Under the pieces are notes generated by a model that saw only the letters and a list, made by a program, of their open reading frames with translations, was not told the origin of the DNA and searched no databases. The translations under genes and the position numbers were made by a program. From Verrucomicrobiota bacterium (lineage in GTDB: Bacteria; Verrucomicrobiota; Verrucomicrobiia; Limisphaerales; JACDHS01): DNA of 60,715 bases. Shown here piece after piece: positions 1-60,715 of the stretch (within the stretch, counting starts at the first letter, position 1; the number at the start of each line of letters is the position of its first letter). The stretch lies in assembly GCA_013820875.1 (NCBI GenBank), contig JACDHS010000010.1, positions 1 through 60,715 on the forward strand, read 5' to 3'.

Positions 1-367
1 TTGGGCGCAAGGCTGACGGAATGCCAGGCTGGCTGACCATCTGGCGTGGCTGGCAGCGACTCATTTGGATGTGCGAAGGATTAGAAAGCCTTAAGGTAAA
101 CTAAAAAGATGTGGGTAATGACAAGGTCTCCAACCCCAACGGAGCTCCCACACGGGGCTGCGTAATCTTTCTGGAGTTGAAAACACCGAGAAACCGTCAA
201 AAATCTTTTGCAAATGTTTTAAATACAACAGAATGGACATGCGTCGAACTGGCGCATGAGGGCACAAATTGTGCGCTCAAAAAAAGAGCAGATGCAGTTT
301 AGTATGCAGTTCTCCCAAATAACATTGCTGCAGTCGGATGGATCGGACCGTTTGTTGACCTAAACAA
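1..367. other. Intergenic lead-in, no supported gene
   Basis: I see no convincing gene here. A 63-codon open frame at 111-302 has no recognisable domain, no clear ribosome binding site and an unremarkable composition, so it is not called. The stretch probably carries the promoter of the efflux operon that starts at 368, but no confident -35/-10 pair could be picked. Confidence 0.4.
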
Positions 368-2071
368 ATGGGCGCGATCCAATTACATCGTTGTGTTAAA
401 ATCTGCTGTACGGTCGTTGCAGCGCTGCTTCTCGTTTCCTGCTCCAGCAAGCATTACCGGGCCTCCGCTGATAAAGAAACGGCCGCTGTGTTGGCCCAGA
501 AAACACCTTTGGTGCAGAACATGGACACCAATTTCACGGTGGAAGCCCAGGGGAAAAGCGCGCTCGACGATCTCCCCCTGTTTGAGAAGACGGAAGAATA
601 CTTCGGGCCTGACGCAGATTTGGAGATGAACGCCAGGGTCATCTCGCTGGAAAAAGCTCTAAACCTGGCGGTGAAACAAAGCCATACCTACCAGAACCGG
701 AAGGAAGATCTTTATGTCAGGGCTCTTCGGTTGACGCTGGAACGTCATGAATACGCTCCCCTTTTCTCCGGCAGGTCCAGAGGACGCACCTCACGTTCGA
801 CCACCCAGGTTCGTGGCGGCGTGGACCAGATCGTGGAGCGCGACGTGACGGGTGACCAGAATGCGGGGTTGCGAATGTTGAGCCGGGCTGGAACCCGTCT
901 CGCCACCGATTTCAGCACCGATTTCCTGCGCTTTATCACCGGCGATCCCCGGTTAACCAGTTCCTCAGCGCTGGTCGGCACGTTGTCGCAACCGTTGTTG
1001 CGCGGGTCGGGCGCAAGGATTGCCGCCGAAAGATTGACGCAAGCGGAACGCAGTTTTCTCTATTCGATGCGCGATTTCACCAGGTATCGCAAGGAGTTCT
1101 CGGTGGACATTGCTTCCAGCTATTACAACGTGTTGCAAAACCGCGATGCGGTGCGGAACAGTTGGCGCGGTTACCAGAATTTCAAAGCCAACGTGGAACG
1201 CGAACGGGCCTTTGCCGAAGTGGGACTTCGCGCCCGGGCGCAGTTGGAACAATTGCGGCAGGCTGAGTTGAGCGCAGAATCCAAATGGATCAATGCCGTC
1301 CGTGTTTATCGCCAAAGCCTCGATAAATTCAAGATCGATATTGGCCTGCCGGTGGAAGCAGACATCGTCCTGGATGACTCGGAGTTGAACAAACTCGAAG
1401 TGGTGGATCCTCAACTGGCGCTGGACGAAGCCCTTGAGGTGGCGTTGATCAGCCGTCTTGACCTGGAAACGGACCGGGACGAATTGATCGATGCCGAGCG
1501 TCACATCTCGGTGGCGAAAAATGCTTTTCTGCCGCAACTGGATGCGGTCGGTTCGGCGAACGTTTCGGGCAACGGAAGGGGCGGCTTATCCACTCCGCAA
1601 TGGGATCGTTACCGTTGGAATGCCGGTGTGGATCTCGATCTGCCGTTGAATCGCAAGGCTCAACGCAACAGTTATCGGGAAGCGATCATCCGACACGAAC
1701 GCGCCCAGCGCAAACTGGCCCTGGCGGTGGACAACATTAAACTGCAACTGGCGGATGACTGGCGTAATCTCGAACAGGCAAAACGGAACTATGAGATCAG
1801 TGAAGTCGGCGTTGCAATCGCCGCGGGCCGTGTGGAAGAACAGGATCTTCGCCAGAAGCTGGGCCGCGGCACAGCCCGCGACATGGTGGATGCCCAGAAC
1901 GATTTGATAGATTCCAAAAACCAGCGCACGAGCGCGCTCGTCAGTCACACCGTGGCGCGGCTCAGGTTCTGGCGTGACATCGGCATTTTGATCATCAAAG
2001 AGAATGGTGAATGGGATGATGTAAACCGGGACGATGTCGTCAAACAGGAGAATGAATTCAGTGATAACTAA
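368..2071 (+). CDS. TolC-family outer-membrane efflux lipoprotein
   Basis: Probable outer-membrane channel of a tripartite efflux pump. The 567-aa product starts with a basic n-region, a hydrophobic stretch and a lipobox (LLLVSCSS), with lipidated Cys at residue 25, so it is likely anchored in the outer membrane. The rest is the long helical, Gln/Arg/Ala-rich pattern of TolC/NodT family proteins, with two related halves (about 110-330 and 350-540). The membrane-fusion adaptor follows with a short overlap, then the ABC ATPase and permease, so all four are probably co-transcribed. The substrate cannot be read from sequence. The family call is strong; a specific name such as TolC or OprM is not justified. 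Confidence 0.85.
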   Translation: MGAIQLHRCVKICCTVVAALLLVSCSSKHYRASADKETAAVLAQKTPLVQNMDTNFTVEAQGKSALDDLPLFEKTEEYFGPDADLEMNARVISLEKALNLAVKQSHTYQNRKEDLYVRALRLTLERHEYAPLFSGRSRGRTSRSTTQVRGGVDQIVERDVTGDQNAGLRMLSRAGTRLATDFSTDFLRFITGDPRLTSSSALVGTLSQPLLRGSGARIAAERLTQAERSFLYSMRDFTRYRKEFSVDIASSYYNVLQNRDAVRNSWRGYQNFKANVERERAFAEVGLRARAQLEQLRQAELSAESKWINAVRVYRQSLDKFKIDIGLPVEADIVLDDSELNKLEVVDPQLALDEALEVALISRLDLETDRDELIDAERHISVAKNAFLPQLDAVGSANVSGNGRGGLSTPQWDRYRWNAGVDLDLPLNRKAQRNSYREAIIRHERAQRKLALAVDNIKLQLADDWRNLEQAKRNYEISEVGVAIAAGRVEEQDLRQKLGRGTARDMVDAQNDLIDSKNQRTSALVSHTVARLRFWRDIGILIIKENGEWDDVNRDDVVKQENEFSDN

Positions 2072-3929
2072 AGTGTTCCATTTTTTGCGCAGACAACCGC
2101 GCTGGCGCTTAACCGTCGCAGTGCTGGCGCTCGCTGTGGCCGGCTATTGGATTTTTGGCGGAAGCCCAAAGGCGATGAATGAAATCACCTTTGAGGTTAA
2201 GCGAGGGCCCATGGACATCATCGTGCTGGAAGGCGGCAGCATCGAAGCGCTGCAATCGCAGGAAATTCGCTCGGAAGTAAAAGGCAGCAGCACAAAGATT
2301 TTGAAGATCGTTGAGGAAGGTTACCAGGTCACAGAGGAAGATGTGCAGTCGGGCAAGGTGCTGGTGGAACTCGACAGCGCGGACATCCAGTCGCGCATGA
2401 CGCAGCAGGAAATTCAGTTTCAATCCTCAATCGCCTCGCTTACGGAAGCGAGACAAAGCTACGAAATCCAGCGCAACCAGAACACGAGCACCATCAAGGC
2501 GGCTGAACAAAAGGCGCAGTTTGCAAAAATGGATTTTGAAAAGTTCATGGGTGATCAGGCGTTCAATGAAATCGTCGTTACACTAAAACTCGACAAACTC
2601 GAAGCCGCCGCCAGCAAGATCGTGTCGGGCGAAGACGTTGAACGGATCATGCTCACAGCCATGGAAACCAACGAGCTGTGGATGGCGGAAGAATATCTCA
2701 ACAGGGAGGAAACGGACAAAACGGCACTGCGACCGGCCGTCATTTCGACGCCCAATCGCCCCACCCCTGCCCGGCGCATTTTGGATTTCACCAGGTATGC
2801 CAATGCGGAAATGCTGGGGGACGGCTCCGCGATGCAGCAATTGCGCAAACTCACAGACGAAAAGCAAACGGCGGAACAGCAGCGAAGTTTGTCCAGGACC
2901 AAGCTGGCGGGAACGCGTCTGCTATTTGAAAGAGGTTTCGTCACCCAGACCGAACTCGATACGGAAGAAATCACGGCAAAGAACAACGAACTGAAGGTGG
3001 CCACCACAGTTACTGCTTATAATCTGTTCATCAAATATGAATTTCAAAAGCAGGCGCAGGAATTGGTGTCCAAATATGAGGAGGCCTTGCGCGGCTTGGA
3101 ACGGGAAAAGAAGGAGGGCATCTCGAAACTGGCACAGTCCAGGGCGCGGTTGAAAGGCGCGGAAGGACGTTACAACATTGAAGCGAACCAACGCCGGGAT
3201 TGGCTTGCCCAACTTGAAAAATGCCAGCTCAGAGCTCAGAAGCCAGGACTGGTGGTTTATGGCGGCGGATCGTCCGACGGTTATTACAGCAACAACGAAC
3301 AGATCCGGGAAGGCGCCGCGGTGCGCGAGCGACAACCGATCATCACCATCCCTGACATGACGCGCATGGGGGTGCGGGTGAAGGTGCATGAATCCTATAT
3401 CCAAAAAATACACAGGGGCTTGCCCGCAAAGATCCAGGTGGACGCATTTCCAAACCGCAAATTAATGGGCGAAGTGACAAAGGTCGCCCTGTTGCCCGAC
3501 TCACAAAATCGTTGGACCAATCCGGACCTCAAAGTGTACCAGACAATGGTCACCATCGTGGGAACACACGATTGGTTGAAACCGGGGATGAGCGCGAAAG
3601 TTGAGATCCTCGTGAAACAATTGGACGATGTCCTCTATGTCCCCTTGCAGGCTGTGTCAGAACTCGCCGGTAAACACTTTTGTTATGTCGCTGGTATTCG
3701 GGTGGAAATGCGGGAAGTGGAGATCGGCGATTTCAATGATGAGTTTATCGAAATTAAAAAAGGGTTGAACGAAGGCGAAAATGTCCTGCTGCGCGCTCCC
3801 AGCCAAAGCTCCGCCCAGGGCAAGAGCAAAAAGAAAAACGAACGCCCTGCTGAAAGCGATCCACTCCCCGCCCCCGTCCAGGAAGACACCCCTGATTCTG
3901 CCGGAAAAAGCACCAAACCAGCGGCCTGA
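2034..3929 (+). CDS. HlyD/MacA-type periplasmic adaptor of an ABC efflux pump
   Basis: Membrane-fusion protein expected to bridge the inner-membrane permease (4609-5943) and the TolC-like channel (368-2071). One N-terminal transmembrane helix lies at about residues 21-42, followed by a lipoyl-like half-motif (GGSIEALQSQEIRSEVKG), a long coiled-coil hairpin (about 110-400), a beta-barrel segment with the usual KPGMSAKVEI motif, and a Lys/Pro-rich C-terminal tail. At 631 aa it is much longer than the roughly 370-400 aa of MacA; the extra length is mainly in the hairpin region. The start may be the ATG at 2034 or the in-frame ATG at 2052; an AGGAG lies at 2046-2050, too close to 2052 to decide. 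It overlaps the upstream gene in either case. Confidence 0.85.
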   Translation: MSSNRRMNSVITKVFHFLRRQPRWRLTVAVLALAVAGYWIFGGSPKAMNEITFEVKRGPMDIIVLEGGSIEALQSQEIRSEVKGSSTKILKIVEEGYQVTEEDVQSGKVLVELDSADIQSRMTQQEIQFQSSIASLTEARQSYEIQRNQNTSTIKAAEQKAQFAKMDFEKFMGDQAFNEIVVTLKLDKLEAAASKIVSGEDVERIMLTAMETNELWMAEEYLNREETDKTALRPAVISTPNRPTPARRILDFTRYANAEMLGDGSAMQQLRKLTDEKQTAEQQRSLSRTKLAGTRLLFERGFVTQTELDTEEITAKNNELKVATTVTAYNLFIKYEFQKQAQELVSKYEEALRGLEREKKEGISKLAQSRARLKGAEGRYNIEANQRRDWLAQLEKCQLRAQKPGLVVYGGGSSDGYYSNNEQIREGAAVRERQPIITIPDMTRMGVRVKVHESYIQKIHRGLPAKIQVDAFPNRKLMGEVTKVALLPDSQNRWTNPDLKVYQTMVTIVGTHDWLKPGMSAKVEILVKQLDDVLYVPLQAVSELAGKHFCYVAGIRVEMREVEIGDFNDEFIEIKKGLNEGENVLLRAPSQSSAQGKSKKKNERPAESDPLPAPVQEDTPDSAGKSTKPAA

Positions 3930-3932
3930 CCT

Positions 3933-4622
3933 ATGTCCGCTTCAACCATCGTAAAACTTCAGGACGTTCGGAAGACCTACCAGATGGGCTCTGTGAGCGT
4001 GGAGGTGTTGCGCGGAATTTCTCTCGAATTTTTAACCGGTGAATACATTGCGATCATGGGTCCATCCGGTTGCGGCAAATCCACAATGCTGAATTTGTTG
4101 GGCTGCCTGGATCGTCCGACCACCGGCCAATATCTGCTCGATGGCAAAGATGTTTCACAACTGGAAGACGACGCCTTGTCGGCCATCCGCGGCGCCAAGC
4201 TCGGTTTCATATTTCAATCTTATAATTTGATCCAGCAATTGTCGGTGATCGAAAACATCGAGGTGCCGCTTTATTACCAGGGGCGTCCTGAAGAGGAGAG
4301 CCGTGAAACCGCGGTGGAGCTCGCGAAGATGGTCGGTTTGGAAAGCCGGCTCAATCACAAGCCATTCGAACTTTCCGGGGGACAACAACAGCGGGTCGGA
4401 ATCGCGCGCGCATTGGCGAATGATCCATTGGTCATTCTGGCTGACGAACCCACCGGCAATCTCGATTCCTCTTCCGGCAAAGACATCCTGAATATTTTTG
4501 CAAACCTGCATGAGCGCGGGAAGACCATCATCATGGTGACGCACGACCCGGGAATTGCGCAACTAACGACGCGCGTGGTGCGATTCTGTGACGGCGAAGT
4601 GGAGAGCGATGTCCGACGTTAA
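3933..4622 (+). CDS. ABC transporter ATP-binding protein, MacB/LolD type
   Basis: Cytoplasmic nucleotide-binding subunit that powers the adjacent FtsX-type permease. All diagnostic motifs are present: Walker A GPSGCGKST (about residues 42-50), the Q-loop around FIFQSYNLI, signature LSGGQQQRVGIARAL, Walker B VILADEPTGNLD and the switch His in MVTHDP. At 229 aa it is the normal length for this family (MacB N-domain, LolD, FtsE). It starts three bases after the adaptor stop, and its end overlaps the permease start, consistent with translational coupling. In MacB the ATPase and permease are fused; here they are separate genes, as in many non-enterobacterial pumps. Confidence 0.93.
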   Translation: MSASTIVKLQDVRKTYQMGSVSVEVLRGISLEFLTGEYIAIMGPSGCGKSTMLNLLGCLDRPTTGQYLLDGKDVSQLEDDALSAIRGAKLGFIFQSYNLIQQLSVIENIEVPLYYQGRPEEESRETAVELAKMVGLESRLNHKPFELSGGQQQRVGIARALANDPLVILADEPTGNLDSSSGKDILNIFANLHERGKTIIMVTHDPGIAQLTTRVVRFCDGEVESDVRR

Positions 4623-5943
4623 AAAAGATATTAAAAACCTGCGGCGGGAGTTTCAGTTCTCCGGCCAGCGGCTCAACCGATCCATGCGCCTGGCGCTTAA
4701 AAGCCTTTGGCTGCATCGGTTGCGTTCACTTCTGACGATGCTCGGAATCGTGTTCGGCGTCTGCTCGGTGATAGCGATGTTGGCGATCGGCGAAGGGGCG
4801 AGTTCTGAAGCGCAGGATCAGATTAAAAATCTTGGCAGTCTCAACATCATCCTGCGGAGCGCAAAACCTCCGGAAGAGCAGAAGGTTTCCAATACCCAAC
4901 AGAATCTGGTGCTGGATTATGGATTGACCCACCTGGATCTTCGGCGCATTGAGAACACGATTCCCGGGGTCAGCAGCGTCGTTCCCTCCCGGCTCATCCG
5001 TGAATATGTCTGGAACGCCACGCACCGGGTTGATTGCGAGATCGTCGGCACGTTGCCCGCCTATCCCGAGATTCGCAACCAGCGCGTAGCATTGGGTCGC
5101 TTCTTTACATTCCGCGAGTCCGAAACAGGGGCAAACGTCTGCGTGTTGAGCGGGGGCATGGCGAGGATGTTGTTTCCCACGGAATCGCCGCTCGGCAAAG
5201 ACGTGCGGGTCTCGCAAGATTATTACCGGGTGATCGGTGTCATGGAAGCCGGGGCACAACTGCCGGGAGATGCCACCGCACAGCAAGGTTCATCCTCCAT
5301 TCCTGTGCAGCGGATGTTTATTCCCCTTGCAGCGGCAAGGATGCAGTTCGGTGAAACGTTGATCAAACGTCGCGCCGGCAGTTTCGAGGCGGAACGAGTG
5401 CCCCTCCATGAAATCACCGTAAAAGCAGAGGATCGCAATGCGGTCGCCAATGTCTCCCTCGCCATCAAAGACCTGTTGACCAGGAATCATAAAAAGAAAG
5501 ATTACGAAATGATTGTCCCACTCGAGTTGTTGAAACAAGCCGAGCGAACAAAACAGATTTTCAACATTGTCCTGGGATCGATTGCGGCGATTTCTCTTCT
5601 CGTCGGCGGCATCGGCATCATGAACATCATGCTGGCCAATGTGACGGAACGCACCCGTGAGATTGGAATTCGACGCGCCCTCGGCGCGCGGCGTCGCGAC
5701 ATTGTCACTCAATTCCTGGTGGAAGCCGTGATGTTGTCAGGCACAGGAGGCCTCGTGGGAGTCATGCTCGGAATCACCCTGCCCTTCCTGGTCACCCATT
5801 TTGCGGGAATGAAAACCATCGTGACATTCTGGTCGCCGATGATTGCCTTTAGCATTTCAGCAGTGATCGGAATCGTTTTCGGCCTCTATCCAGCGATGCG
5901 AGCCGCTGAAATGGATCCTGTCGAGGCGCTGCGCCACAATTAA
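4609..5943 (+). CDS. MacB-like ABC transporter permease (FtsX family)
   Basis: Inner-membrane permease of the tripartite pump. One transmembrane helix near the N-terminus (LRSLLTMLGIVFGVCSVIAMLAIG) is followed by a large periplasmic MacB_PCD domain (about 65-280) and three C-terminal helices with the FtsX signature GGIGIMNIMLANVTERTREIG-like segment. The preferred start is ATG 4609, preceded by GGAGAG at 4601-4606; an upstream in-frame ATG at 4588 lacks a comparable site. The gene overlaps the ATPase gene by 14 bases. Such systems use ATP hydrolysis to drive a mechanotransmission cycle rather than classical substrate translocation through the membrane. The exported substrate is unknown. Confidence 0.92.
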   Translation: MSDVKKDIKNLRREFQFSGQRLNRSMRLALKSLWLHRLRSLLTMLGIVFGVCSVIAMLAIGEGASSEAQDQIKNLGSLNIILRSAKPPEEQKVSNTQQNLVLDYGLTHLDLRRIENTIPGVSSVVPSRLIREYVWNATHRVDCEIVGTLPAYPEIRNQRVALGRFFTFRESETGANVCVLSGGMARMLFPTESPLGKDVRVSQDYYRVIGVMEAGAQLPGDATAQQGSSSIPVQRMFIPLAAARMQFGETLIKRRAGSFEAERVPLHEITVKAEDRNAVANVSLAIKDLLTRNHKKKDYEMIVPLELLKQAERTKQIFNIVLGSIAAISLLVGGIGIMNIMLANVTERTREIGIRRALGARRRDIVTQFLVEAVMLSGTGGLVGVMLGITLPFLVTHFAGMKTIVTFWSPMIAFSISAVIGIVFGLYPAMRAAEMDPVEALRHN

Positions 5944-13443: not shown

Positions 13444-16400
13444 CGGACCATCCCCACGCGGGTGGGGAGAACTCTTCATCGCAGAAAAAGGAAGCGCTCT
13501 CATTCGGACCATCTCCACGTGTGTGGGGAGAACTATTGGGCACTCCGACCGCAACGCAACGGGCCGCTGGTTCTCGGACCATCCCCACATGTGTGGGGAG
13601 AACAGATCTACCCAATTCCCGAATAGACCAACCAACGGACCATCCCCACGTGTGTGGGGAGAACTCGTTAAATTTATGTCCGCCCCTGTCTGGTCCCGGA
13701 CCATCCCCACGTGTGTGGGGAGAACCGCACCTCGCCCGCATCCCGGAAACGCACAACCGGACCATCCCCACGTGTGTGGGGAGAACCGCTTGCGCTGTGA
13801 TGATGTTCAACCGTGCGTCGGACCATCCCCACGTGTGTGGGGAGAACTGAATAAATCGAAGCAGGCGGATGTGACGAACCGGACCATCCCCACGTGTGTG
13901 GGGAGAACGCTTACATCCTTGCTGTGGGTTTCATTAAAACCGGACCATCCCCACGTGTGTGGGGAGAACGCCCGCAACGCCGTCGCCACATCGGTGGACC
14001 GCGGACCATCCCCACGTGTGTGGGGAGAACTTTATCCCGCAACGTCACTCCCGGATCCGCTCCGGACCATCCCCACGTGTGTGGGGAGAACAACCAGAGC
14101 GAGGGATGACGCCCTTCCCTTCACGGACCATCCCCACGTGTGTGGGGAGAACCGTTCCTTCGCGCTCCCCCATCGGCATCCATTCGGACCATCCCCACGT
14201 GTGTGGGGAGAACGCTCACTTCATTTATCGGCGTCGTCGTGTTCTCGGACCATCCCCACGTGTGTGGGGAGAACTAATTCGGTCAGGTTCATTTCGGTTT
14301 GAAATACGGACCATCCCCACGTGTGTGGGGAGAACATGTTTTATTGTGTGTTGTGGAATTAGTTTTTCGGACCATCCCCACGTGTGTGGGGAGAACGCTT
14401 TCTGCCCGGCAATATCTGCGCCGTAATACGGACCATCCCCACGTGTGTGGGGAGAACATTTTTTCACAGTCGCGCAAATGGTTTGGACGCGGACCATCCC
14501 CACGTGTGTGGGGAGAACTGAAAAGCTCTTTACTATCCCCGCCGCATCGCCGGACCATCCCCACGTGTGTGGGGAGAACTCGTCAGGCACCGGGGTTTCG
14601 TGGCCGTAGTCCGGACCATCCCCACGTGTGTGGGGAGAACCGCTGGCATTCCAGGTCTGGCGTTGGGAACCACGGACCATCCCCACGTGTGTGGGGAGAA
14701 CGTTTTTTAGGGGCGGAACATTGTCCCCATACGCGGACCATCCCCACGTGTGTGGGGAGAACTTTGCCGGACAGCTTGCAATGAGATTTGCCGCCGGACC
14801 ATCCCCACGTGTGTGGGGAGAACATTCAGTGTTTCGTTGAACGCAAGCACAAAAACGGACCATCCCCACGTGTGTGGGGAGAACTACCAAGGATTTTTGC
14901 CGAAAATTCGTTCATTCGGACCATCCCCACGTGTGTGGGGAGAACTAAAAAGGCAGCGGAAAAGGCTCACAGCAGTCCGGACCATCCCCACGTGTGTGGG
15001 GAGAACTTTTAGAGTGACTGTTTGCATTGCTGATGACCCGGACCATCCCCACGTGTGTGGGGAGAACATCCGCAATGTGAACGGATTCATTTTTTGCATC
15101 GGACCATCCCCACGTGTGTGGGGAGAACCCAAACCTCGGTGCATACATTGTCCTTGTTGTCGGACCATCCCCACGTGTGTGGGGAGAACCCCATTTCGAG
15201 TCATACCCCAAGCTGGTAAGTCCGGACCATCCCCACGTGTGTGGGGAGAACTTTAGCCAATTCCATTTCGCGCAAAGTGCGGCCGGACCATCCCCACGTG
15301 TGTGGGGAGAACCTGCCTGCCGTCAAGCAGTGCTGCGAATTGTTCGGACCATCCCCACGTGTGTGGGGAGAACCTTCCGCGAATATCTGCGCCGCTCTTG
15401 ATTCGCGGACCATCCCCACGTGTGTGGGGAGAACTTCTTCACTATCAGCAATCGGGAAGCGCCTTGCGGACCATCCCCACGTGTGTGGGGAGAACGATAC
15501 TCATCCATCTTTAAGTCGCCTTTCCATCGGACCATCCCCACGTGTGTGGGGAGAACTTCGAATGACGCTTGCGCTTCCAGAAGTTCGCCGGACCATCCCC
15601 ACGTGTGTGGGGAGAACTGTTTTGCCGCAGTTGAGATACCGACCACCCGCGGACCATCCCCACGTGTGTGGGGAGAACCGCGCAACATCACGCGGCAAGG
15701 ATTGCGGACGCGGACCATCCCCACGTGTGTGGGGAGAACTGCTTTGCGCGTAGTCCGCTCAATCGGGATTTCGGACCATCCCCACGTGTGTGGGGAGAAC
15801 TCACCAGGCGGCTTAAAAGAAGCCACATCCCCCGGACCATCCCCACGTGTGTGGGGAGAACTCCTCGCTCCCCATCAACCGACGCGCATAAATCGGACCA
15901 TCCCCACGTGTGTGGGGAGAACTCCACAAGGCTTTGATACACCTCAACGAGCGGCGGACCATCCCCACGTGTGTGGGGAGAACTCCTGAAAAGTTACGCC
16001 CAATTTCTCGAACGACGGACCATCCCCACGTGTGTGGGGAGAACAAATACGCGGTAGTTGCCCGTATTTATGAAGACGGACCATCCCCACGTGTGTGGGG
16101 AGAACAATTCAATTGGTGAGTTGTCAGGAAAACACGCCGGACCATCCCCACGTGTGTGGGGAGAACTGCATCACGCTCCGAATCAAAATCCACGGAAACG
16201 GACCATCCCCACGTGTGTGGGGAGAACAAAACCACGCCGGACAAAGTTTATTCAAACGGCGGACCATCCCCACGTGTGTGGGGAGAACTGGACATCATCC
16301 AGGGCGATGCAATGCAGTTGCGGACCATCCCCACGTGTGTGGGGAGAACAAGCGGCTTCACTGCAGCGATGGTGAGAGGGTCGGACCATCCCCACGTGTG

Positions 16401-16593
16401 TGGGGAGAACGTTTGAGATTACGATCTCACGAAACCGCAGCGCGGACCATCCCCACGTGTGTGGGGAGAACTTCGTGAGATCGTAATCTCAAACTCCGCA
16501 GCGCGGACCATCCCCACGTGTGTGGGGAGAACCAAACAATGAACGGAACACCGCTCAACTGGGCCGGACCATCCCCACGTGTGTGGGGAGAAC
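13444..16593 (-). CRISPR. Type I-E CRISPR array, 52 repeats and 51 spacers
   Basis: The repeat is 29 bp. On the minus strand it reads GTTCTCCCCACACACGTGGG followed by GATGGTCCG, closely matching the type I-E pattern, so crRNAs are made from the minus strand with the leader at 16594. Spacers are 32 nt except for one of 41 nt (13534-13574) and one of 33 nt (15190-15222). Repeats are identical through most of the array; the three furthest from the leader vary (13444 has CGCGGG, 13505 has ATCTCC, 13575 has ACATGT), as expected for the old end. Spacers at 16411-16442 and 16472-16503 are related to one another. Frames open through the array are artefacts of the repeats. Confidence 0.99.
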
Positions 16594-46632: not shown

Positions 46633-46835
46633 TACCGAGTCCCGATCCGAACGGATTGCCTCTCGGTTACGCTAACCGAGTCCCGATCCGAACGGATTGC
46701 CTCTCGGTTACGCTAACCGAGTCCCGATCCGGACGGATTGCCTCTCGGTTACGCTAACCGAGTCCCGATCCGGACGGATTGCCTCTCGGTTACGCTAACC
46801 GAGTCCCGATCCGGACGGATTGCCTCTCGGTTACG
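46633..46835 (+). repeat. Five near-identical 41-bp palindromic tandem units
   Basis: ACCGAGTCCCGATCC recurs at 46634, 46675, 46716, 46757 and 46798, exactly 41 bases apart. Each unit folds as TAACCGAG ... ATCCG.ACGGAT ... CTCGGTTA with a CGC linker. The first two copies carry AACGGAT and the last three GACGGAT, otherwise they are nearly identical, indicating recent amplification. The surrounding gap (46430-46993), between the convergent GH9 and feoB genes, shows no gene. Confidence 0.95.
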
Positions 46836-49572: not shown

Positions 49573-49854
49573 TTATGCAACCAATTGTTTGGGAATCGGT
49601 TCGACCCAGATGTGGTCGGCCAGTTGTGAATGAAGGCCGATCCGGGACTGGCAAACCTGGCAGATATAATGGCTCTGCCGGCTGATCAACTTGATGCATT
49701 GGTCTTCGCAAAAACCCATTTCACGAAGGCGAACAGTCACTTCAGGTGAGGTGGACAATTGCCTGATGCGAACAGCCGTGCCAACCGTGACGCGACTCAA
49801 AGGGCACAGTAGCGGCTTTGAACACTCGCTGGCTGTTGGACTACAATTACTCAC
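49573..49854 (-). CDS. Second FeoA-domain protein
   Basis: A 93-aa protein with one FeoA domain: VGTAVRIRQLSTSPEVTVRLREMGFCEDQCIKLI. It differs from its neighbour in having cysteines at CEDQC and a YICQVCQSRIG pair (CX2C), which could bind iron or zinc; a further Cys cluster lies near the N-terminus. It is the first gene of the feo operon. A sensing or metal-relay function is inference; the fold call is firm. Confidence 0.82.
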   Translation of the reverse strand: MSNCSPTASECSKPLLCPLSRVTVGTAVRIRQLSTSPEVTVRLREMGFCEDQCIKLISRQSHYICQVCQSRIGLHSQLADHIWVEPIPKQLVA

Positions 49855-50063
49855 GTCAGCGGCAAGTTATTGGAATTGAGACTGAGTTGCAAGAGGGTTT
49901 CAGTCGAAAGTTGAATCCGGATCAGAAAAAATACCTATATCTTTTCCATTCGGAGGGAGCTATAAAGCGTTATCCCAAAGACAGCTATGCAGACACAACA
50001 TCTTTGCCCAATCCTTTTGTATTTTGCGTTTTCCCCCTGACTCACGCTGTAACTAAACACCCA

Positions 50064-52292
50064 ATGAAAAAAACACTAATAAACCTCCTAAAGAAAACCT
50101 GCCTCATAGCTGCGCTCCTGTGCAGCGGCAGCTTTGCCCAAAACGCTAATGCACAAGAATTTCGCGCCCTCTGGGTGGATGCCTGGGGAGCCGGCTTCTT
50201 GAACGCGAGCCAGGTCACGACCCTGGTGAATCATTGCCGCACTTATAACTTCAATGCTGTCGTCGTGCAGATGCGCCGCCGCGGTGATGCTTTCTACATG
50301 CCGCAGGCCCCAAACGGTGACCCGCGCACCACCGTAATCGCCTCTGGTTACGACGCCCTGCAGGAATTGATCAATCAATGCAATACGGGCACGCCGAAAA
50401 TCGAAGTCCATTGCTGGGCGGTTACACAACTGATCTGGAGCGGCACCACGGCCCCGTCGCAATCGGGTCACGTGTATAATTTGCATCCGGGTTACCTGAC
50501 GCGAAACTCCACTGGGGCGACCCTCATTGGAGAAGGTTACTATCTGGATCCCGGGCATCCCGATGCAGCGATGTGGAACTACAACATGGCGAAGGATGTC
50601 GTGAGCCGTTACAACATCAACGGCTTCCATTGGGATTACATTCGTTATCCGCAACAGAATTCCGGGTACAATCCAACCGCCATCGCTCGTTACAACGCCG
50701 AGTTTGGACTGACCGGTCAACCGTCAGCCAGCAACACCCAGTTTTCCAACTGGCGCCGCCGCCAGATTACCGATTTCCTGCGCTGGTCCAGCGCCGATCT
50801 GCTCGCCATCAAACCCAACCTCGTGATTTCCACCTCTGTGTTTGCGAGCCGATCCGATGCCTTCACCCATCGCCTCCAGGATTGGGCTGCATGGAACAAC
50901 GAAGGCATTCTCGATATCTGTATGCCGATGAACTACACGGCCGACAACTCCACGTTTAACTCCCGCGTGACCGATGCCTTCAACAATCAAGGGGTGCGCC
51001 GCGTTTACATGGGCCAGGGCGCCTACTTGAACACGAAGGAAAATACTGTCGTGCAGATGAATTACGTGCGTAACAAGCCGCTTCTCGGTGGCCAGCTCTA
51101 CAGCTATCGCATTCCCAACAGCGGCACGGTCACTCAAACGACCACGTTGAACTACATCAAAAATAATTTCCAACCCACCTGGCAAAACACCCCGACTCTG
51201 CCTTGGAAAACCAATCCAACAAAAGGCGTCGTCAAAGGCACTGTTACCCGGCAGGACACCGGTGCGGCGGTTTACAATGCCACCATTACCATCAACACCA
51301 GTCCATCCCGCACCCAGAAAACGACTGTGCATGGCAAATATGCTTTGTTTGAGTTACCCACCGGTTCCTACACAGTCACAGCAAGCGCAACTGGCCTGAA
51401 CAACGCGACAGGCAATATTCTGGTCGAAGCAGGAACGATTAAAACCGTCAATCTCGTCATGTCCTCAGGCGGTGGAGGCGGCGGGACCGATGTGATCGTT
51501 GATAATCCGGCTGCCACCGTGAGCGGCTCATGGAGCACCGCGACAAGCGCCACGGATAAATATGGCGCGGACTATCGTTTCAAATCACAAGGAACCGGAT
51601 CCGCCTACCTGCAGTTCACGCCGAATCTTTCATCCGCCGGTGATTACCAGGTTTTTGAATGGCATTCACAGGGCAGCAATCGCAGCGGCGGCGCTCCCCA
51701 TGTCGTCAGTTACAACGGGCCAACCACCACGGTCAATGTGAACCAAAAAGTAAACGGCGGTCAATGGAACCTCCTCGGCACCTTCAACATGCTGGCGGGC
51801 ACCGGCAACTATGTCCGCATCACCGATGGTTTCTCTGACGGCGGCCAGGTGGCCATTGCGGATGCCATCCGATTCGTCAAAGTTCCACCCGTAATCATCA
51901 TGGATAATCCTTCGGCCAGCATCGTGGGCTCATGGACCCTCGCCACGAGTGCCACCGATAAATTTGGTTCCGATTATCGCTACAAAGGACAGGGAACCGG
52001 ATCGGCCTACTTGCAATACACGCCCAACATCCAAACCGCTGGAAGTTACGCTGTGTATGAATGGCATTCACAGGGCAGCAACCGGACAACCGGTGCCCCA
52101 ATCGTGGTTAACTACAGCGGCGGTTCTCAAACCGTTTCTTTAAACCAACAAATCAACGGCGGGCAATGGAACCTCGTCGGCACTTACAATTTTGCCACAG
52201 GCACAAGCGGCAATATTCGTATCACGGACAACTTCAGCACCGGCAGTGTTGTGATCGCTGATGCAATCCGCATGGTGTTTGTTTCTCCGTAA
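50064..52292 (+). CDS. Secreted GHL10 (DUF187)-like glycoside hydrolase with golvesin-like domains
   Basis: The start is ATG 50064, which opens a signal peptide (MKKTLINLLKKTCLIAALLC ... NANAQ); the frame extends upstream to 49818 without a sensible N-terminus. Residues about 35-375 form the hydrolase-like barrel with EFRALWVDAWGAGF, VVVQMRRRGDAFY and GFHWDYIRYP, as in DUF187/GHL10 proteins. A carboxypeptidase-regulatory-like domain follows (about 390-465), then two homologous golvesin-type domains (about 475-605 and 610-742), each with DKYGADYRF/DKFGSDYRY, YLQ.TPN and EWHSQGSNR. Substrate unknown, probably a complex polysaccharide or peptidoglycan-like glycan. It ends 20 bases before a strong terminator. 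Confidence 0.85.
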   Translation: MKKTLINLLKKTCLIAALLCSGSFAQNANAQEFRALWVDAWGAGFLNASQVTTLVNHCRTYNFNAVVVQMRRRGDAFYMPQAPNGDPRTTVIASGYDALQELINQCNTGTPKIEVHCWAVTQLIWSGTTAPSQSGHVYNLHPGYLTRNSTGATLIGEGYYLDPGHPDAAMWNYNMAKDVVSRYNINGFHWDYIRYPQQNSGYNPTAIARYNAEFGLTGQPSASNTQFSNWRRRQITDFLRWSSADLLAIKPNLVISTSVFASRSDAFTHRLQDWAAWNNEGILDICMPMNYTADNSTFNSRVTDAFNNQGVRRVYMGQGAYLNTKENTVVQMNYVRNKPLLGGQLYSYRIPNSGTVTQTTTLNYIKNNFQPTWQNTPTLPWKTNPTKGVVKGTVTRQDTGAAVYNATITINTSPSRTQKTTVHGKYALFELPTGSYTVTASATGLNNATGNILVEAGTIKTVNLVMSSGGGGGGTDVIVDNPAATVSGSWSTATSATDKYGADYRFKSQGTGSAYLQFTPNLSSAGDYQVFEWHSQGSNRSGGAPHVVSYNGPTTTVNVNQKVNGGQWNLLGTFNMLAGTGNYVRITDGFSDGGQVAIADAIRFVKVPPVIIMDNPSASIVGSWTLATSATDKFGSDYRYKGQGTGSAYLQYTPNIQTAGSYAVYEWHSQGSNRTTGAPIVVNYSGGSQTVSLNQQINGGQWNLVGTYNFATGTSGNIRITDNFSTGSVVIADAIRMVFVSP

Positions 52293-55884: not shown

Positions 55885-58800
55885 ATGATCAAAACTAACT
55901 TTTACCCGCTGAGAACGATCGTTGGACCATCGATCCGAATAAATGGAATCACCAGCTATCCTAGGGATCCAGGCCCCCTGACAATCGAGGTTAAGAGCCG
56001 TCGTGACCAGAGCGATGCTGTGGTTGATAATGTTTATTCCAAGTTTCTCCCGGACATTGTCCAAAATGGTGTTCTATACCGCCCAGTAAATGGCATGAAC
56101 ACAATGCCTGTCGCCGACAGCAATCTATTGTCCTTCGGCAACATTGGCGCAGCCGGATTGCTTAATGCCTTCAGGAATCCACCTGATCTTCCGTTCCCCG
56201 ATACCGAGCCTTTGTGGTCCATTTTTGGCTACGACGAAAAGAACCTTTTCGAAATGGTGCTAGACTCACCTTCCAACGGCCCAAAGGTTAACCCCTTTTG
56301 GTCGAACCAGGACAAAGATTATTCCTTTTTGATACTGCTAGACCGGTTGGCTCCCGTTGGAGGGATCTGTTTTCAGGGCTATCCGTTTGTTTCCAGCAGG
56401 ATTGAGAACACAGCCGAAGGATTAACGGTTGGGAATTTCGGATTGCCGAAGGAAATCCGACTAACTCCGCTTCCAGCCTTCAACGGCGGGTCTTTGGATG
56501 CACATTTGGGGTTCGAACGGAGTCAATTCATCGATTCCGAGTTCGCATATACCCGGCAGGAAATGATTTCGCATAGCGGTTTGAATTACCTGACCATCGA
56601 TCCGGTCAAAACCAATTTATTTCTGCTCACGCTGACGGACCTCCCTTTTATCCCGAGAATCATTGATCTCGATGCACGTGCAGACCAGGCAGACAATCCG
56701 TTGCTGGTGAAAGGGTTCAAGGGATTCGCGATGCCTTACCTGTATTTCTTTGAATATAAAGAACAGACAAAGCGGCATGCACGGCTGCACTCGGGGTTGC
56801 TTGGAGTGAAGCCCTCTTACCCTCATCGACCTAAGATCGATGGAGACAGCACACGCGAGGATGTTCTTCGGAGGGCATTTCCCGAATATGAGTTTTACTT
56901 TTTGAAAGAAGGGAAAAAGGACGCCGACAGTTCAAGCGCAAAAACCATCAAAGAACTTCAAGCTGAATTGGTCGGTCTCAAAGCAGCACTGAAGAGCAAA
57001 GCTAAAAATAAGGAGAAAATCAAAAAGCGAATTCAAGAGCTCACGCAAAAACTGAAAAAACTTCAAAAGAAGAGCCAAGGCGCGGAGAAAAATGCAAACC
57101 AGGAAGGCGGATACATTCTTTACACTGCTCACAGCGCACTTGGCCAACGCAGAGAGTTTCAGATTTCTTACGCAGACCTCGGTTATCCTCAAGAATTATC
57201 AAACGTGCCACCCTTGAGGAGCGGCAAGCTGATTTCGGAATGTTTTATTTCCGATTTATTGCAGCCTGACGAGAGCGTCACGCTTTACCTACAACAAGGT
57301 GAAGAGCTCGAACGATGTATCGCTGGATTGAAAGCACTCTTTCTTATGCTGCCTGAGGACATCGAGTCAGGCGGGTTGGCTGAATGGTTTGCGAACTTCT
57401 CAGGAATGGCGTTGGGCAACAACCCCTTGACGGAACAAGAGAGAACCTTGCTAGAGGACGCTCTCGCGGTGATGTTTCGGCTTCCTGTCGAAACGAATTT
57501 CTGCGAGAGCATCGGCGTTAAGATTTTTGAAATTGATCCCGTTGAAGGAGTCTCGCCAGCGTCAGTAGATTTCCATTCGAAGTACGCCCACTTGCTTGCC
57601 GATGTAACGATCGACACGTTTGAGGAAGTGATCTTTTCACAGTTGCTGAAAGGAATACCTTTTCGCAGGACTTCGTCAGCCAAGTACTTCGCAATTGAAT
57701 TAACAAACAAAGGCCAGAAGAACGGCCAGGTTGCCATTCATTCACTTCACCTGGTTCGGTCAGCGCATGTCTCTGTTCAGCCCAGGGCAGCAAAAACACA
57801 GCAAGTGAAGGCGATGCACTACCGCATTATTGGGCCTGAACTGGCTGATGACTTCGCAAAGCTCGGGAATGAGGGATTCAATTTCAGCATTGATCGGGTT
57901 GTTGCGGGGCAAACAAAGAATGTAATGTACTCTGCTATTAGCTTGTTGGATTTGCTGCATACCGGCGGGGCAAGAATCCATTCAAACGCCAGAAGGAGAG
58001 CTGCAGAATTTGAAATGATCGAAAATTTTAGAGAGTTGCCGCAAAAAGATTTTGGACAAGCACAGAACTACCAAATCAAAAAGTTCAGCAACGATGATTT
58101 CTCCAGATCAAACGAAGATAATCGTGTAACTCAAGGGTGGAAAAGAAGCGAGAGTGGCGATGGAGTTTCATGGAATTCACCTAAATATAGACCGCAAGAT
58201 TTCCCAAGTTCGATCAACGAAAGTGCATTCGAGAGTTATGGAACCATCGAAAATCGGATTCATAGTACATCATTATTTCCTGATACGACGAACATTGACT
58301 GGGCAACAGTTTCTGCCTTAGGAAATATGCTCAAGGTCATTACTGACCCGACACAGGGCCTCCAAACCGTTATAAATCAGTTTAATAGTGGAGGCATTAA
58401 CGACCTAAGATCATTCATAGATTCTTTAATTCCTGACGGCTTATTAATACAAAGCTACAGGGCAGCAACCGTCGCAAATAGCAATAGGGAACAATTAGTC
58501 AAAGATTTCGAAAAAATTTGGAAGGGTATTAGCACCTCTGCAAATAGCTTACGGGTTACTGGAATTGTCTCATCATCTCAATCGCCAGTTGGAATATCTG
58601 CAATTGCAGGAGATACTCTTGGCGATGTTATCAGGTCTCTTGATAATTTATTTAAAATGGGTTCTGACTTAACTAGTCTTTTGACTCAATCTGATACTCA
58701 ATCTGATACTCAATCTGATACTCAATTTGATATTGCTAAGATAGGGGAAATTATTGAGGGCTTTGGTGGTATGCTGGATCTGCTAATTACTATCGGTTCC

Positions 58801-59325
58801 ATTGCCACCTCTGCAATACCTGGATCTCCCACATCCGTTGCTCAAGTAGTTCCTTTTTTGAATGGTTTGACGCTGGGAATCACTACGGGAGTTGGTGTAA
58901 ATGTGAGTTCTGGCCCTAATTTGATTCTACCGTCATTTCAGATGAACGCGAATTCTGGTTCGAGTGGCTCGATCAACAAAAGCGCTACAAAATCAGGGTA
59001 TTCATACAACCAGTTTCTAAACGTCGGATATGACAATTCACTTTTCGGCGGTAGCGAAATAAAAAGAATTCTTTCACGCAGAGAACTCTCAAATAGAGAT
59101 AATGAAAGGGTCCGTGGTGCTGAAGTAATGTGGCAAAACCAAATACAAGATATAATTACAGGTAGCATACCATTGAATTTAACATTTCCTGCAACTGCGA
59201 CGAAACAGCATTTTCGCACAGCTGATGAATCTCTGAGAGTAAGGTTCAACAGCGGATTCTCGCCGTCAATACAGGTAGATTTTTGGTTTGAACTCACAGA
59301 GGAGACCATCCGAGATGATTATTGA
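55885..59325 (+). CDS. Large protein of unknown function with coiled coil
   Basis: A 1146-aa protein I cannot assign to a family. There is no signal peptide. Residues 1-340 look like mixed alpha/beta with many Pro/Asn/Asp and aromatic positions. A strongly charged coiled coil spans about 352-405 (ELQAELVGLKAALKSKAKNK and on). The C-terminal third is Ser/Asn/Asp-rich, with a short SDTQ tandem repeat at about 935-950 (12-bp DNA repeat at 58684-58731) and a hydrophobic, Gly/Thr-rich stretch at about 962-1012 that could enter a membrane. Base composition drops towards AT from about 58000. It overlaps the next gene, suggesting an operon. A secreted, surface or injected protein is conceivable; nothing proves it. 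Confidence 0.8.
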   Translation: MIKTNFYPLRTIVGPSIRINGITSYPRDPGPLTIEVKSRRDQSDAVVDNVYSKFLPDIVQNGVLYRPVNGMNTMPVADSNLLSFGNIGAAGLLNAFRNPPDLPFPDTEPLWSIFGYDEKNLFEMVLDSPSNGPKVNPFWSNQDKDYSFLILLDRLAPVGGICFQGYPFVSSRIENTAEGLTVGNFGLPKEIRLTPLPAFNGGSLDAHLGFERSQFIDSEFAYTRQEMISHSGLNYLTIDPVKTNLFLLTLTDLPFIPRIIDLDARADQADNPLLVKGFKGFAMPYLYFFEYKEQTKRHARLHSGLLGVKPSYPHRPKIDGDSTREDVLRRAFPEYEFYFLKEGKKDADSSSAKTIKELQAELVGLKAALKSKAKNKEKIKKRIQELTQKLKKLQKKSQGAEKNANQEGGYILYTAHSALGQRREFQISYADLGYPQELSNVPPLRSGKLISECFISDLLQPDESVTLYLQQGEELERCIAGLKALFLMLPEDIESGGLAEWFANFSGMALGNNPLTEQERTLLEDALAVMFRLPVETNFCESIGVKIFEIDPVEGVSPASVDFHSKYAHLLADVTIDTFEEVIFSQLLKGIPFRRTSSAKYFAIELTNKGQKNGQVAIHSLHLVRSAHVSVQPRAAKTQQVKAMHYRIIGPELADDFAKLGNEGFNFSIDRVVAGQTKNVMYSAISLLDLLHTGGARIHSNARRRAAEFEMIENFRELPQKDFGQAQNYQIKKFSNDDFSRSNEDNRVTQGWKRSESGDGVSWNSPKYRPQDFPSSINESAFESYGTIENRIHSTSLFPDTTNIDWATVSALGNMLKVITDPTQGLQTVINQFNSGGINDLRSFIDSLIPDGLLIQSYRAATVANSNREQLVKDFEKIWKGISTSANSLRVTGIVSSSQSPVGISAIAGDTLGDVIRSLDNLFKMGSDLTSLLTQSDTQSDTQSDTQFDIAKIGEIIEGFGGMLDLLITIGSIATSAIPGSPTSVAQVVPFLNGLTLGITTGVGVNVSSGPNLILPSFQMNANSGSSGSINKSATKSGYSYNQFLNVGYDNSLFGGSEIKRILSRRELSNRDNERVRGAEVMWQNQIQDIITGSIPLNLTFPATATKQHFRTADESLRVRFNSGFSPSIQVDFWFELTEETIRDDY

Positions 59326-60376
59326 TAGAATACAACTTGCAGGCCGGGATGCTTATTTTCAGGCACCAAACAATCCCGGGACAGTTAACCTTGCTCCGGC
59401 GGCGCAACTTGCCGTGCCGGTCACGGTTCGTACCGCCCCGTTGAAGAAGGGCCAACAGGTTGAGATTTCAGGTTTACAACTTCTAATTGAGGGCGACGAC
59501 CTTAGGCCGATGTTCCAGTTTCAGTTGGATGCCAATGGCAAACCGGCGCCTTTATTTCGCATTTCGGTGATGAAGGAAATGTTTTCCGGCCTGTTCGCTG
59601 ACCCTTTTCGACACCGGGTTTACAACGTTGCCGGCGCGCTGGATTTCAATGAAGGTACTTTGAGCAACGGCCGAATATTGGAGGTGGAGGGGATTCCCAC
59701 CATTTGTTCTGTGGGGAAAGAAGAATGCAAATGGGTTAGCAGAATATATGTTCTAGCAGAACCGATTTCGATCGATTCCGTGGCATGGGAGCTTGCATCC
59801 TCGAAACTCACAGCACCCGATAGCTTCAGCTACAGAATCGATGTTGATTGTTTCGACGCCAGCAACAATCCTGTTGGCATAATCAGCACGGGAGCGAATC
59901 TCATTAAGGCAGATAAACCCCGTTTTGTAGAACAGCAACTCGATGGAGTGGCCTCCTTTCAGGTTACATTTCGGGCAATAGTGAACCAGGACTCTTTTGT
60001 CACCGAGCGGCATCTTCCTACCTTCAATGAAAAAACAGGCAGGCCCTTGCTGAGAGCCATCAACGTCCTGGAGATGCTGGACAATTCGGTTGGCAGCGCC
60101 CGGTGTGTTTACGACATCCATTCCTTAACCGAACTGAAAAGCCTTTGCAGCGATTTTCAATTGTTTGAGGCGCCTGGACCGGAAATAAAACGGCTGACGT
60201 CTACTTTAAATTTGATCGCTGTATTGGTAAATAGCCCCAATCAGGTTATTACTAACAATGACATCTACCATGCCAACAGCCGATTTGAGTTTGTAGAACT
60301 TGAATTGATGCAAGATGTATTTACGAGGTTTGATGCGAAAAGAAATGGTGAAATTCTAGTAAGAACAAATGGATGA
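59315..60376 (+). CDS. Protein of unknown function, partner of the 1146-aa protein
   Basis: From ATG 59315 (MIIDRIQLAGRDAYFQAP) it has 353 aa; an upstream ATG at 59288 would add nine residues from within the previous gene. No signal peptide or membrane helix. The pattern is beta-rich with alternating hydrophobic residues (LAVPVTVRTAPLKKGQQVEISGLQLLIEG; SFQVTFRAIVNQD), suggesting a beta-sandwich. I do not recognise the family. The 11-base overlap with the gene before and 46-base gap to the one after indicate a co-expressed set. Confidence 0.8.
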   Translation: MIIDRIQLAGRDAYFQAPNNPGTVNLAPAAQLAVPVTVRTAPLKKGQQVEISGLQLLIEGDDLRPMFQFQLDANGKPAPLFRISVMKEMFSGLFADPFRHRVYNVAGALDFNEGTLSNGRILEVEGIPTICSVGKEECKWVSRIYVLAEPISIDSVAWELASSKLTAPDSFSYRIDVDCFDASNNPVGIISTGANLIKADKPRFVEQQLDGVASFQVTFRAIVNQDSFVTERHLPTFNEKTGRPLLRAINVLEMLDNSVGSARCVYDIHSLTELKSLCSDFQLFEAPGPEIKRLTSTLNLIAVLVNSPNQVITNNDIYHANSRFEFVELELMQDVFTRFDAKRNGEILVRTNG

Positions 60377-60422
60377 TATGCCCATTTCTCAACAAATAAT
60401 TACTCAATATTAAAACCAATTA

Positions 60423-60715
60423 ATGTCCCAGGACGATAATTCATCATCCAATTCACTTTTAATACGTATTAGAGAAAGAGTGGATTCTAAATGTAGGTGG
60501 ACCTTCAATACTGACCCTACGGTTAGTTACCTTGTTCCTCCATATGATACTTGTGAGCCGGTGGTAAAACCATTTGATGAACCTGCAGATACTGCTAAAC
60601 CTCCACATATAGATACAGGCCGACCTGAACCTGAAAATATTCCTGCTGGTGACCAAAGAGCAGCAGCACCAAAACCTGCCACAGCCATAGATACAGGCAG
60701 ACCTGAACCTGAAAA
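60423..60715 (+). CDS. Start of a Pro/Glu-rich repeat protein, cut by window end
   Basis: An open frame from ATG 60423 continues to the window edge (97 complete codons). It begins MSQDDNSSSNSLLIRIRERV, then a low-complexity region in which IDTGRPEPEN appears and recurs 34 codons later as IDTGRPEPE, with Pro, Ala and Lys between. Such repeats usually form extended linkers or stalks. Being 46 bases after the previous gene in the same direction, it is probably the third gene of the unknown operon. What follows the linker cannot be seen. Confidence 0.65.
   Translation, partial: MSQDDNSSSNSLLIRIRERVDSKCRWTFNTDPTVSYLVPPYDTCEPVVKPFDEPADTAKPPHIDTGRPEPENIPAGDQRAAAPKPATAIDTGRPEPE

What the first reader, a model, noticed from the sequence alone, without database searches (positions are those of the whole stretch)
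55885..60715. Three-gene cluster of unknown function with AT-rich composition
A 1146-aa protein with a coiled coil, SDTQ repeats and a hydrophobic Gly-rich segment, a 353-aa beta-rich protein and a Pro/Glu repeat protein are adjacent and overlapping or closely spaced. None resembles a family I know. GC content falls well below the rest of the window after about 58000. The layout would suit a surface or effector system gained by transfer.
Basis: partly seen in the sequence, partly recalled or inferred. Interest (0 to 1): 0.6.

Follow-up and report, generated by a model that had tools for sequence, protein, structure and literature searches.

The report
Conserved gene pair, swappable third gene
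A rare block of two conserved genes of unknown family, followed by a third gene that differs completely between the two bacteria known to carry the block, looks like a delivery pair with an exchangeable effector, though the function is inferred and untested.

Summary
The three genes are real. The window is one whole contig (C160). It ends inside a 78-bp repeat of gene 3, and the gene very probably continues at the start of contig C123, the only other place in the genome with that repeat. Families, PDB sequences, phages, plasmids, viral contigs and the same order or phylum gave no relative of the two large proteins. One hit changes the picture: a Bacteroidales MAG contig, L006, carries both, 54% identical, in the same order and with the same 11-nt gene overlap. 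Both proteins are under strong purifying selection. At the same position L006 has a third gene without significant similarity to the window's. Both third genes have a low-complexity N-terminal linker and a C-terminal globular part. The L006 one carries an ADP-ribosyltransferase-like motif that no profile confirmed. Residues 781-1020 of the large protein, including the hydrophobic segment, also vary. Best reading: two conserved carrier/binding proteins with an interchangeable cargo effector, moved between phyla. It works like a polymorphic toxin but shares no known carrier. The effector role is inferred, and immunity is not shown. P1 structure prediction failed.

The parts
55885..59325 (+). P1, 1146-aa large conserved protein (carrier/delivery component, inferred)
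   Evidence: ORF; 54% identical to L006:241-3345; purifying selection
56425..56784 (+). P1 residues 181-300, highly conserved block
   Evidence: 92 of 120 aligned residues identical to L006
56926..57105 (+). P1 residues 348-407, coiled coil, an insertion mostly absent from the L006 protein
57505..58044 (+). P1 residues 541-720, highly conserved block
   Evidence: 128 of 180 identical; codon positions 0.78/0.88/0.32
58225..58944 (+). P1 residues 781-1020, variable low-GC region including the SDTQ repeat and the hydrophobic segment
   Evidence: 51 of 182 aligned residues identical and 58 residues without counterpart in L006; GC
58684..58732 (+). 12-bp tandem repeat encoding SDTQ
58741..58893 (+). 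hydrophobic, Gly-containing segment, P1 residues 953-1003
58945..59322 (+). P1 residues 1021-1146, conserved C-terminal block
   Evidence: 78 of 125 identical
59315..60376 (+). P2, 353-aa beta-rich conserved protein, 11-nt overlap with P1
   Evidence: 54% identical to L006:3335-4348
59594..60088 (+). P2 residues 94-258, jelly-roll/carbohydrate-binding-like beta sandwich (low-confidence model)
60423..60715 (+). P3 N-terminal part (third gene, cargo/effector inferred), cut by the contig end; very probably continues at C123 (L004) 1-801
60606..60715 (+). 78-bp repeat of P3 (26-aa unit AIDTGRPEPENIPAGDQRAAAPKPAT), shared with the start of C123

Best explanation
A horizontally moved operon of two conserved proteins (P1, P2) plus an interchangeable third gene. 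Shown: P1 and P2 are conserved as a unit between two phyla with an identical 11-nt overlap; the third gene differs; P1 has a variable hydrophobic region between conserved ends. Inferred: P1 and P2 assemble into a delivery or binding complex, with P2 contributing a carbohydrate-binding-like beta sandwich. P1's variable Gly-containing hydrophobic segment contacts the cargo or a membrane. P3 is the cargo: an N-terminal docking tail, a flexible linker and a C-terminal effector domain, which is ADP-ribosyltransferase-like in L006 and of unknown type in the window. None of the proteins has an obvious signal peptide, so release would be by lysis or an unrecognised route.
For: P1 and P2 are each 54% identical between the window and L006 in the same order. 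Fourfold-degenerate third positions are near random (37 of 142 identical) while second positions are 74% identical. The 11-nt overlap is the same in both. The third gene lies on the same strand, 46 nt and 11 nt after P2, without significant similarity between the two loci (best score 21 bits over low-complexity sequence). Both third genes have a low-complexity first part and a more ordered last part. L006's third protein has a hydrophobic segment peaking at residue 244 and a single GxGVYxS...A..Y match, the only hit of that recalled motif in 247,178 six-frame residues. P2 matches jelly-roll/CBM-type folds at Z 6-7.
Against: Only two loci are known, so 'interchangeable' rests on one comparison and the third genes could be unrelated neighbours. 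No family library recognises an enzyme in either third protein. No secretion route was identified, and no phage-type sheath was found in 2 of 2 genomes. L006 has no gene after gene 3 that could be immunity: 280 nt end in an IS66-like fragment. The window's candidate partner gene (L004:816-1223) has a relative in G060 that is not next to a recognisable toxin. The P2 model is poor (pLDDT 43.7) and its Z values are within the tool's background. The P1 model is unusable (27.2). The two halves of P3 are joined only by the shared repeat and reading frame.
Confidence: 0.45

Rival explanations
1. A surface or extracellular structural assembly (adhesin, sheath or matrix-like): P1 and P2 form a glycan-binding structure and the third gene is a variable surface-exposed tail, not a toxin.
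For: P2 region 94-258 resembles CBM/F5/8-type jelly rolls, Z 6-7; Pro-rich repeats in gene 3; genomic neighbours are exported GHL10/Golvesin_C and ceramidase-like proteins.
Against: No obvious signal peptide: maximum 12-residue hydropathy in the first 40 residues is -0.07 to 1.35 in the 7 cluster proteins, against 2.11 and 2.72 in two neighbouring exported controls. The third proteins share no detectable homology.
Confidence: 0.22
2. An intracellular defence-type system: conserved sensor proteins P1 and P2 with an exchangeable effector (gene 3) acting in the producing cell.
For: No obvious signal peptides; variable effector with a constant core; transfer between phyla; no immunity gene visible in L006.
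Against: PADLOC matches are weak and confined to the coiled coil of P1 or to low-complexity sequence; no NTPase, sensor or nuclease domain found; the CRISPR array is 40 kb away in the window.
Confidence: 0.15
3. Genes 1 and 2 are a real conserved pair of unknown function; gene 3 is an unrelated neighbour in each genome and the operon is a two-gene unit.
For: Only two loci; third genes not homologous.
Against: Same strand and close spacing in both (46 and 11 nt), same overall layout of linker plus C-terminal domain.
Confidence: 0.15

Closest known systems
Polymorphic toxin systems (Zhang et al. 2012, PMC3482391; 12 passages seen)
   Same: A conserved part with an exchangeable C-terminal effector; ART-type toxin domains (Tox-ART-PARP, HYE1, HYD1, HYD2) are listed there.
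   Different: Here the conserved part is two separate proteins outside all listed trafficking modules; no RHS or other listed repeat domain, no processing peptidase, immunity not shown.
ABC/Tc toxin complexes (PMC11067744; only the start of the abstract in a search listing seen)
   Same: A multi-component particle that packages different cytotoxic cargos.
   Different: No RHS or Tc domains in P1, P2 or gene 3 (Pfam).
Streptomyces umbrella toxin particles (PMC11062931, abstract and section list seen; PMC13274773, listing only)
   Same: Polymorphic toxin carried with lectin-type binding components.
   Different: Umbrella loci are reported across Actinobacteria and centre on a repeat-containing toxin protein; no such protein was recognised here.
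F5/8 type C / CBM-like jelly-roll domains
   Same: P2 residues 94-258 align at Z 6-7.
   Different: Low-confidence model, about 10% identity, within the tool's background range.

Membership tests
Polymorphic toxin system | Variable C-terminal toxin domain behind a conserved delivery module | tested here: inconclusive
   Third genes differ between the two loci while P1 and P2 are conserved, but no toxin family was matched
Polymorphic toxin system | Adjacent immunity gene | tested here: inconclusive
   Window side: 135-aa gene 14 nt after gene 3, with a relative in G060 not next to a recognisable toxin. L006: none before the IS66-like fragment
Polymorphic toxin system | Known trafficking or repeat module (RHS, WXG, LXG, TcdB/TcaC, PVC and so on) | tested here: not met
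   No such Pfam or NCBIfam family at E up to 10 in P1, P2 or gene 3
Tc/ABC toxin complex | RHS/Tc domains | tested here: not met
Extracellular contractile injection system | Phage-type tail sheath in the genome | tested here: not met
   PF04984: 0 of 2 genomes (G000, G705); the control rings in 3 of 14 genomes. Completeness of G705 is not given
ADP-ribosyltransferase toxin (L006 gene 3) | Match to an ART profile | tested here: inconclusive
   No ART match in Pfam, NCBIfam, PHROGs or PADLOC, no PDB sequence match; recalled PARP-like motif present
Galactose-binding-like/CBM fold (P2) | Fold match clearly above background | tested here: inconclusive
   Best Z 7.1, rmsd 3.2 over 122 residues, on a model with mean pLDDT 43.7
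DUF7823 (L004:816-1223) | Score above Pfam gathering cut-off 27 bits | tested here: not met
   19.9 bits, E 0.0012

The most novel reading that the evidence does not exclude
P1 and P2 are the founding members of a previously undescribed two-protein delivery particle, unrelated in sequence to known toxin carriers, that moves between phyla and swaps cargo by replacing both the third gene and the matching variable region of P1.
Probability: 0.3. Interest if true: 0.8.

Novelty: new variant of a known kind. Interest (0 to 1): 0.52.

Why it matters
If the reading holds, it adds a delivery pair with no recognised relative to the list of bacterial protein-delivery modules. The paired variable regions (P1 781-1020 and gene 3) would make carrier-cargo matching directly testable. 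Even without a function, two protein families without a match in Pfam, NCBIfam, PHROGs, PADLOC and PDB sequences but kept as a unit across phyla are a clear target for structure work.

Tried and rejected
Families: nothing beyond coiled-coil or chance-level matches for P1, P2 and gene 3. PDB sequences: none at a meaningful E-value. Plasmids and phages by tblastn: no relative. One E = 7 hit of the L006 effector region (H2) was opened and is a stretch with no listed gene between recombinase and EAL-domain genes; treated as chance. Viral contigs: 8 scans, no relative. Genome contigs: P1 scan, 0 relatives among 26 pattern matches; P2 scan, 1 of 44. These scans need exact 7- to 8-residue matches, so members may have been missed and the true number may be larger.

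Whole genomes besides the ones holding the cassette: P1 0 of 386 in the phylum; P2 0 of 319 in the order; P1 profile 0 of 394 in the phylum of G705, 0 of 294 in its order, 0 of 1 in the family of G000. G705 is the only genome held of its family.

Homology between P1 and P2 was suspected by eye and not supported. Weak matches of the gene-3 C-terminal part in three other genomes (14-16 bits) were inspected and look like chance; one is a Vsr-like endonuclease frame by eye (recalled). Structure of P1: unusable. Structure of P2: only the middle is usable; the PDB and viral searches gave generic jelly rolls. Sheath search negative. Flank comparison for an insertion repeat: nothing beyond short chance matches. 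Literature: 6 searches; none of the listings names this system, and 'DUF7823' is in 0 papers.

Full report
What is there. At its right end lie P1 (55885-59325, 1146 aa), P2 (ATG 59315 to 60376, 353 aa) and the start of a third gene, P3 (60423 to the contig end). P3 runs into a 78-bp repeat. A DNA search of the genome finds that repeat in only one other place, the first 159 bases of contig C123. There the same reading frame opens at base 1 and runs to 801. So P3 very probably continues on C123 with at least three repeat units (the number is unresolved) and a C-terminal domain of about 155 residues. A 135-aa gene follows 14 nt later (L004:816-1223). Flanks on both contigs hold paralogous GHL10/Golvesin_C proteins, with 74% DNA identity over 1.2 kb. 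This fits one chromosomal neighbourhood but does not prove it.

GC falls from about 55000, not 58000, and is lowest over 58001-59000. Within P1 the first 700 residues are 0.481 GC and residues 701-1060 are 0.405. The coiled coil (348-407) and SDTQ repeats are real.

Relatives. P1, P2 and gene 3 have no meaningful family match. They have no relative in PDB sequences, plasmids, phages or viral contigs (P1 20, 33, 76, 103; P2 37; gene 3 49). P1 was absent from 386 other genomes of the phylum and P2 from 319 others of the order. One scan of 84,980 species genomes with P2 found a single locus, L006, a 6,036-bp contig of a Bacteroidales MAG. It holds a 1034-aa P1 homologue (241-3345), a 337-aa P2 homologue (3335-4348) and a 465-aa third gene (4360-5757). 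P1 and P2 are each 54% identical. The overlap between genes 1 and 2 is 11 nt in both loci. Codon positions 1/2/3 are identical at 0.62/0.74/0.34 for P1 and 0.60/0.75/0.37 for P2; fourfold third positions at identical residues agree in 37 of 142 (P1) and 20 of 48 (P2). The pair is therefore old, and selected at the protein level. L006's genome belongs to a different phylum by the handles drawn (the listed genomes are new handles) and by its record title. P1 profile searches found no further member in 394 and 294 genomes of that phylum and order. Together with the GC shift this supports transfer. Caveat: L006 is a short contig of a MAG and could be misbinned.

Conserved and variable parts. Identity along P1: 181-300 92 of 120; 541-720 128 of 180; 1021-1146 78 of 125; but 781-1020 only 51 of 182 aligned, with 58 residues lacking a counterpart. 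The coiled coil lies in an insertion largely absent from L006. The variable region holds the hydrophobic segment (953-1003). The third genes show no significant similarity (best score 21 bits over linker-like sequence). Both begin with a low-complexity stretch (72-75% disorder-promoting residues in the compared pieces) and end in a part with 32-33% hydrophobic residues. The L006 third protein also has a hydrophobic stretch, 19-residue mean 1.77 peaking at residue 244. Its last 165 residues contain GRGVYGSPQREIAETY, which I recall as like the G-x-G-[VI]-Y...A..Y part of PARP/ART folds. The recalled pattern hits nowhere else in 247,178 six-frame residues of nine sequences at hand. No profile library or PDB sequence supports ART, and no relative turned up in 177 other genomes of that phylum. 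So ART stays a lead. For the window's own gene-3 domain I have no fold idea.

Structure. With two-row alignments the models are weak: P2 mean pLDDT 43.7, best around residues 171-190 and 211-220; P1 27.2, only the coiled coil confident. The P2 middle aligns to jelly-roll domains: a xanthanase module, IBDV VP2, APC10, F5/8C and CBM modules, Z 6-7.1. The tool warns that Z under 8 may be background. I take it as a beta sandwich, possibly glycan-binding.

Mechanism. Shown: an operon-like pair conserved between phyla with an exchanged third gene. Inferred: P1/P2 carry or dock gene 3's product; the linker lets the C-terminal domain be threaded or presented; the variable region of P1 matches the cargo or meets a membrane. 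The seven cluster proteins lack an N-terminal hydrophobic stretch comparable to two neighbouring exported proteins, and no phage-type sheath is found in 2 of 2 genomes, so the route out of the cell, if any, is unknown. Immunity: the 135-aa gene after P3 has a weak DUF7823 match below cut-off. Its relative in G060 (32% identity, E 1.7e-15; 2 of 239 other genomes matched at E up to 0.01) stands near a DUF1353 gene and no recognised toxin. L006 shows no gene between gene 3 and an IS66-like fragment (E 0.03, below cut-off). Absence of immunity would fit a target other than kin, or a defence role; neither is shown.

Comparison. In logic it resembles polymorphic toxins (PMC3482391, passages seen), where ART toxins of several clades are listed, and multi-component particles such as ABC toxins (PMC11067744, listing only) and umbrella particles (PMC11062931, abstract and section list). 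It fails the tests for their carriers that I could run, so I do not file it as a member of any. The six paper searches show no description of it in their listings.

Verdict. A real, rare, transferred gene set with two orphan but strongly conserved proteins and an exchanged third gene. The carrier-cargo reading is the best supported at 0.45; the main weakness is that only two loci are known.

Noticed in passing
window 14242-16532: Large CRISPR-like array with a repeat ending CGGACCATCCCCACGTGTGTGGGGAGAAC and a 61-bp period; the repeat looks like type I-E by recall.
   Followed up: no
window 46634-46835: 41-bp tandem repeat, 4.9 copies, 99% matches.
   Followed up: no
window 49818-52292 and L004:2329-5202: Two paralogous GHL10/Golvesin_C proteins lie on either side of the cluster, one on each contig.
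   Followed up: partly
L004:816-1223: 135-aa gene after gene 3, weak DUF7823 match; a 32% identical relative lies in G060 near a DUF1353 gene.
   Followed up: partly
L004:12308-12567: 43-bp tandem repeat, 6.1 copies.
   Followed up: no
L006:5895-6035 (minus strand): IS66-like transposase end right after the Bacteroidales cassette, below the Pfam cut-off.
   Followed up: partly
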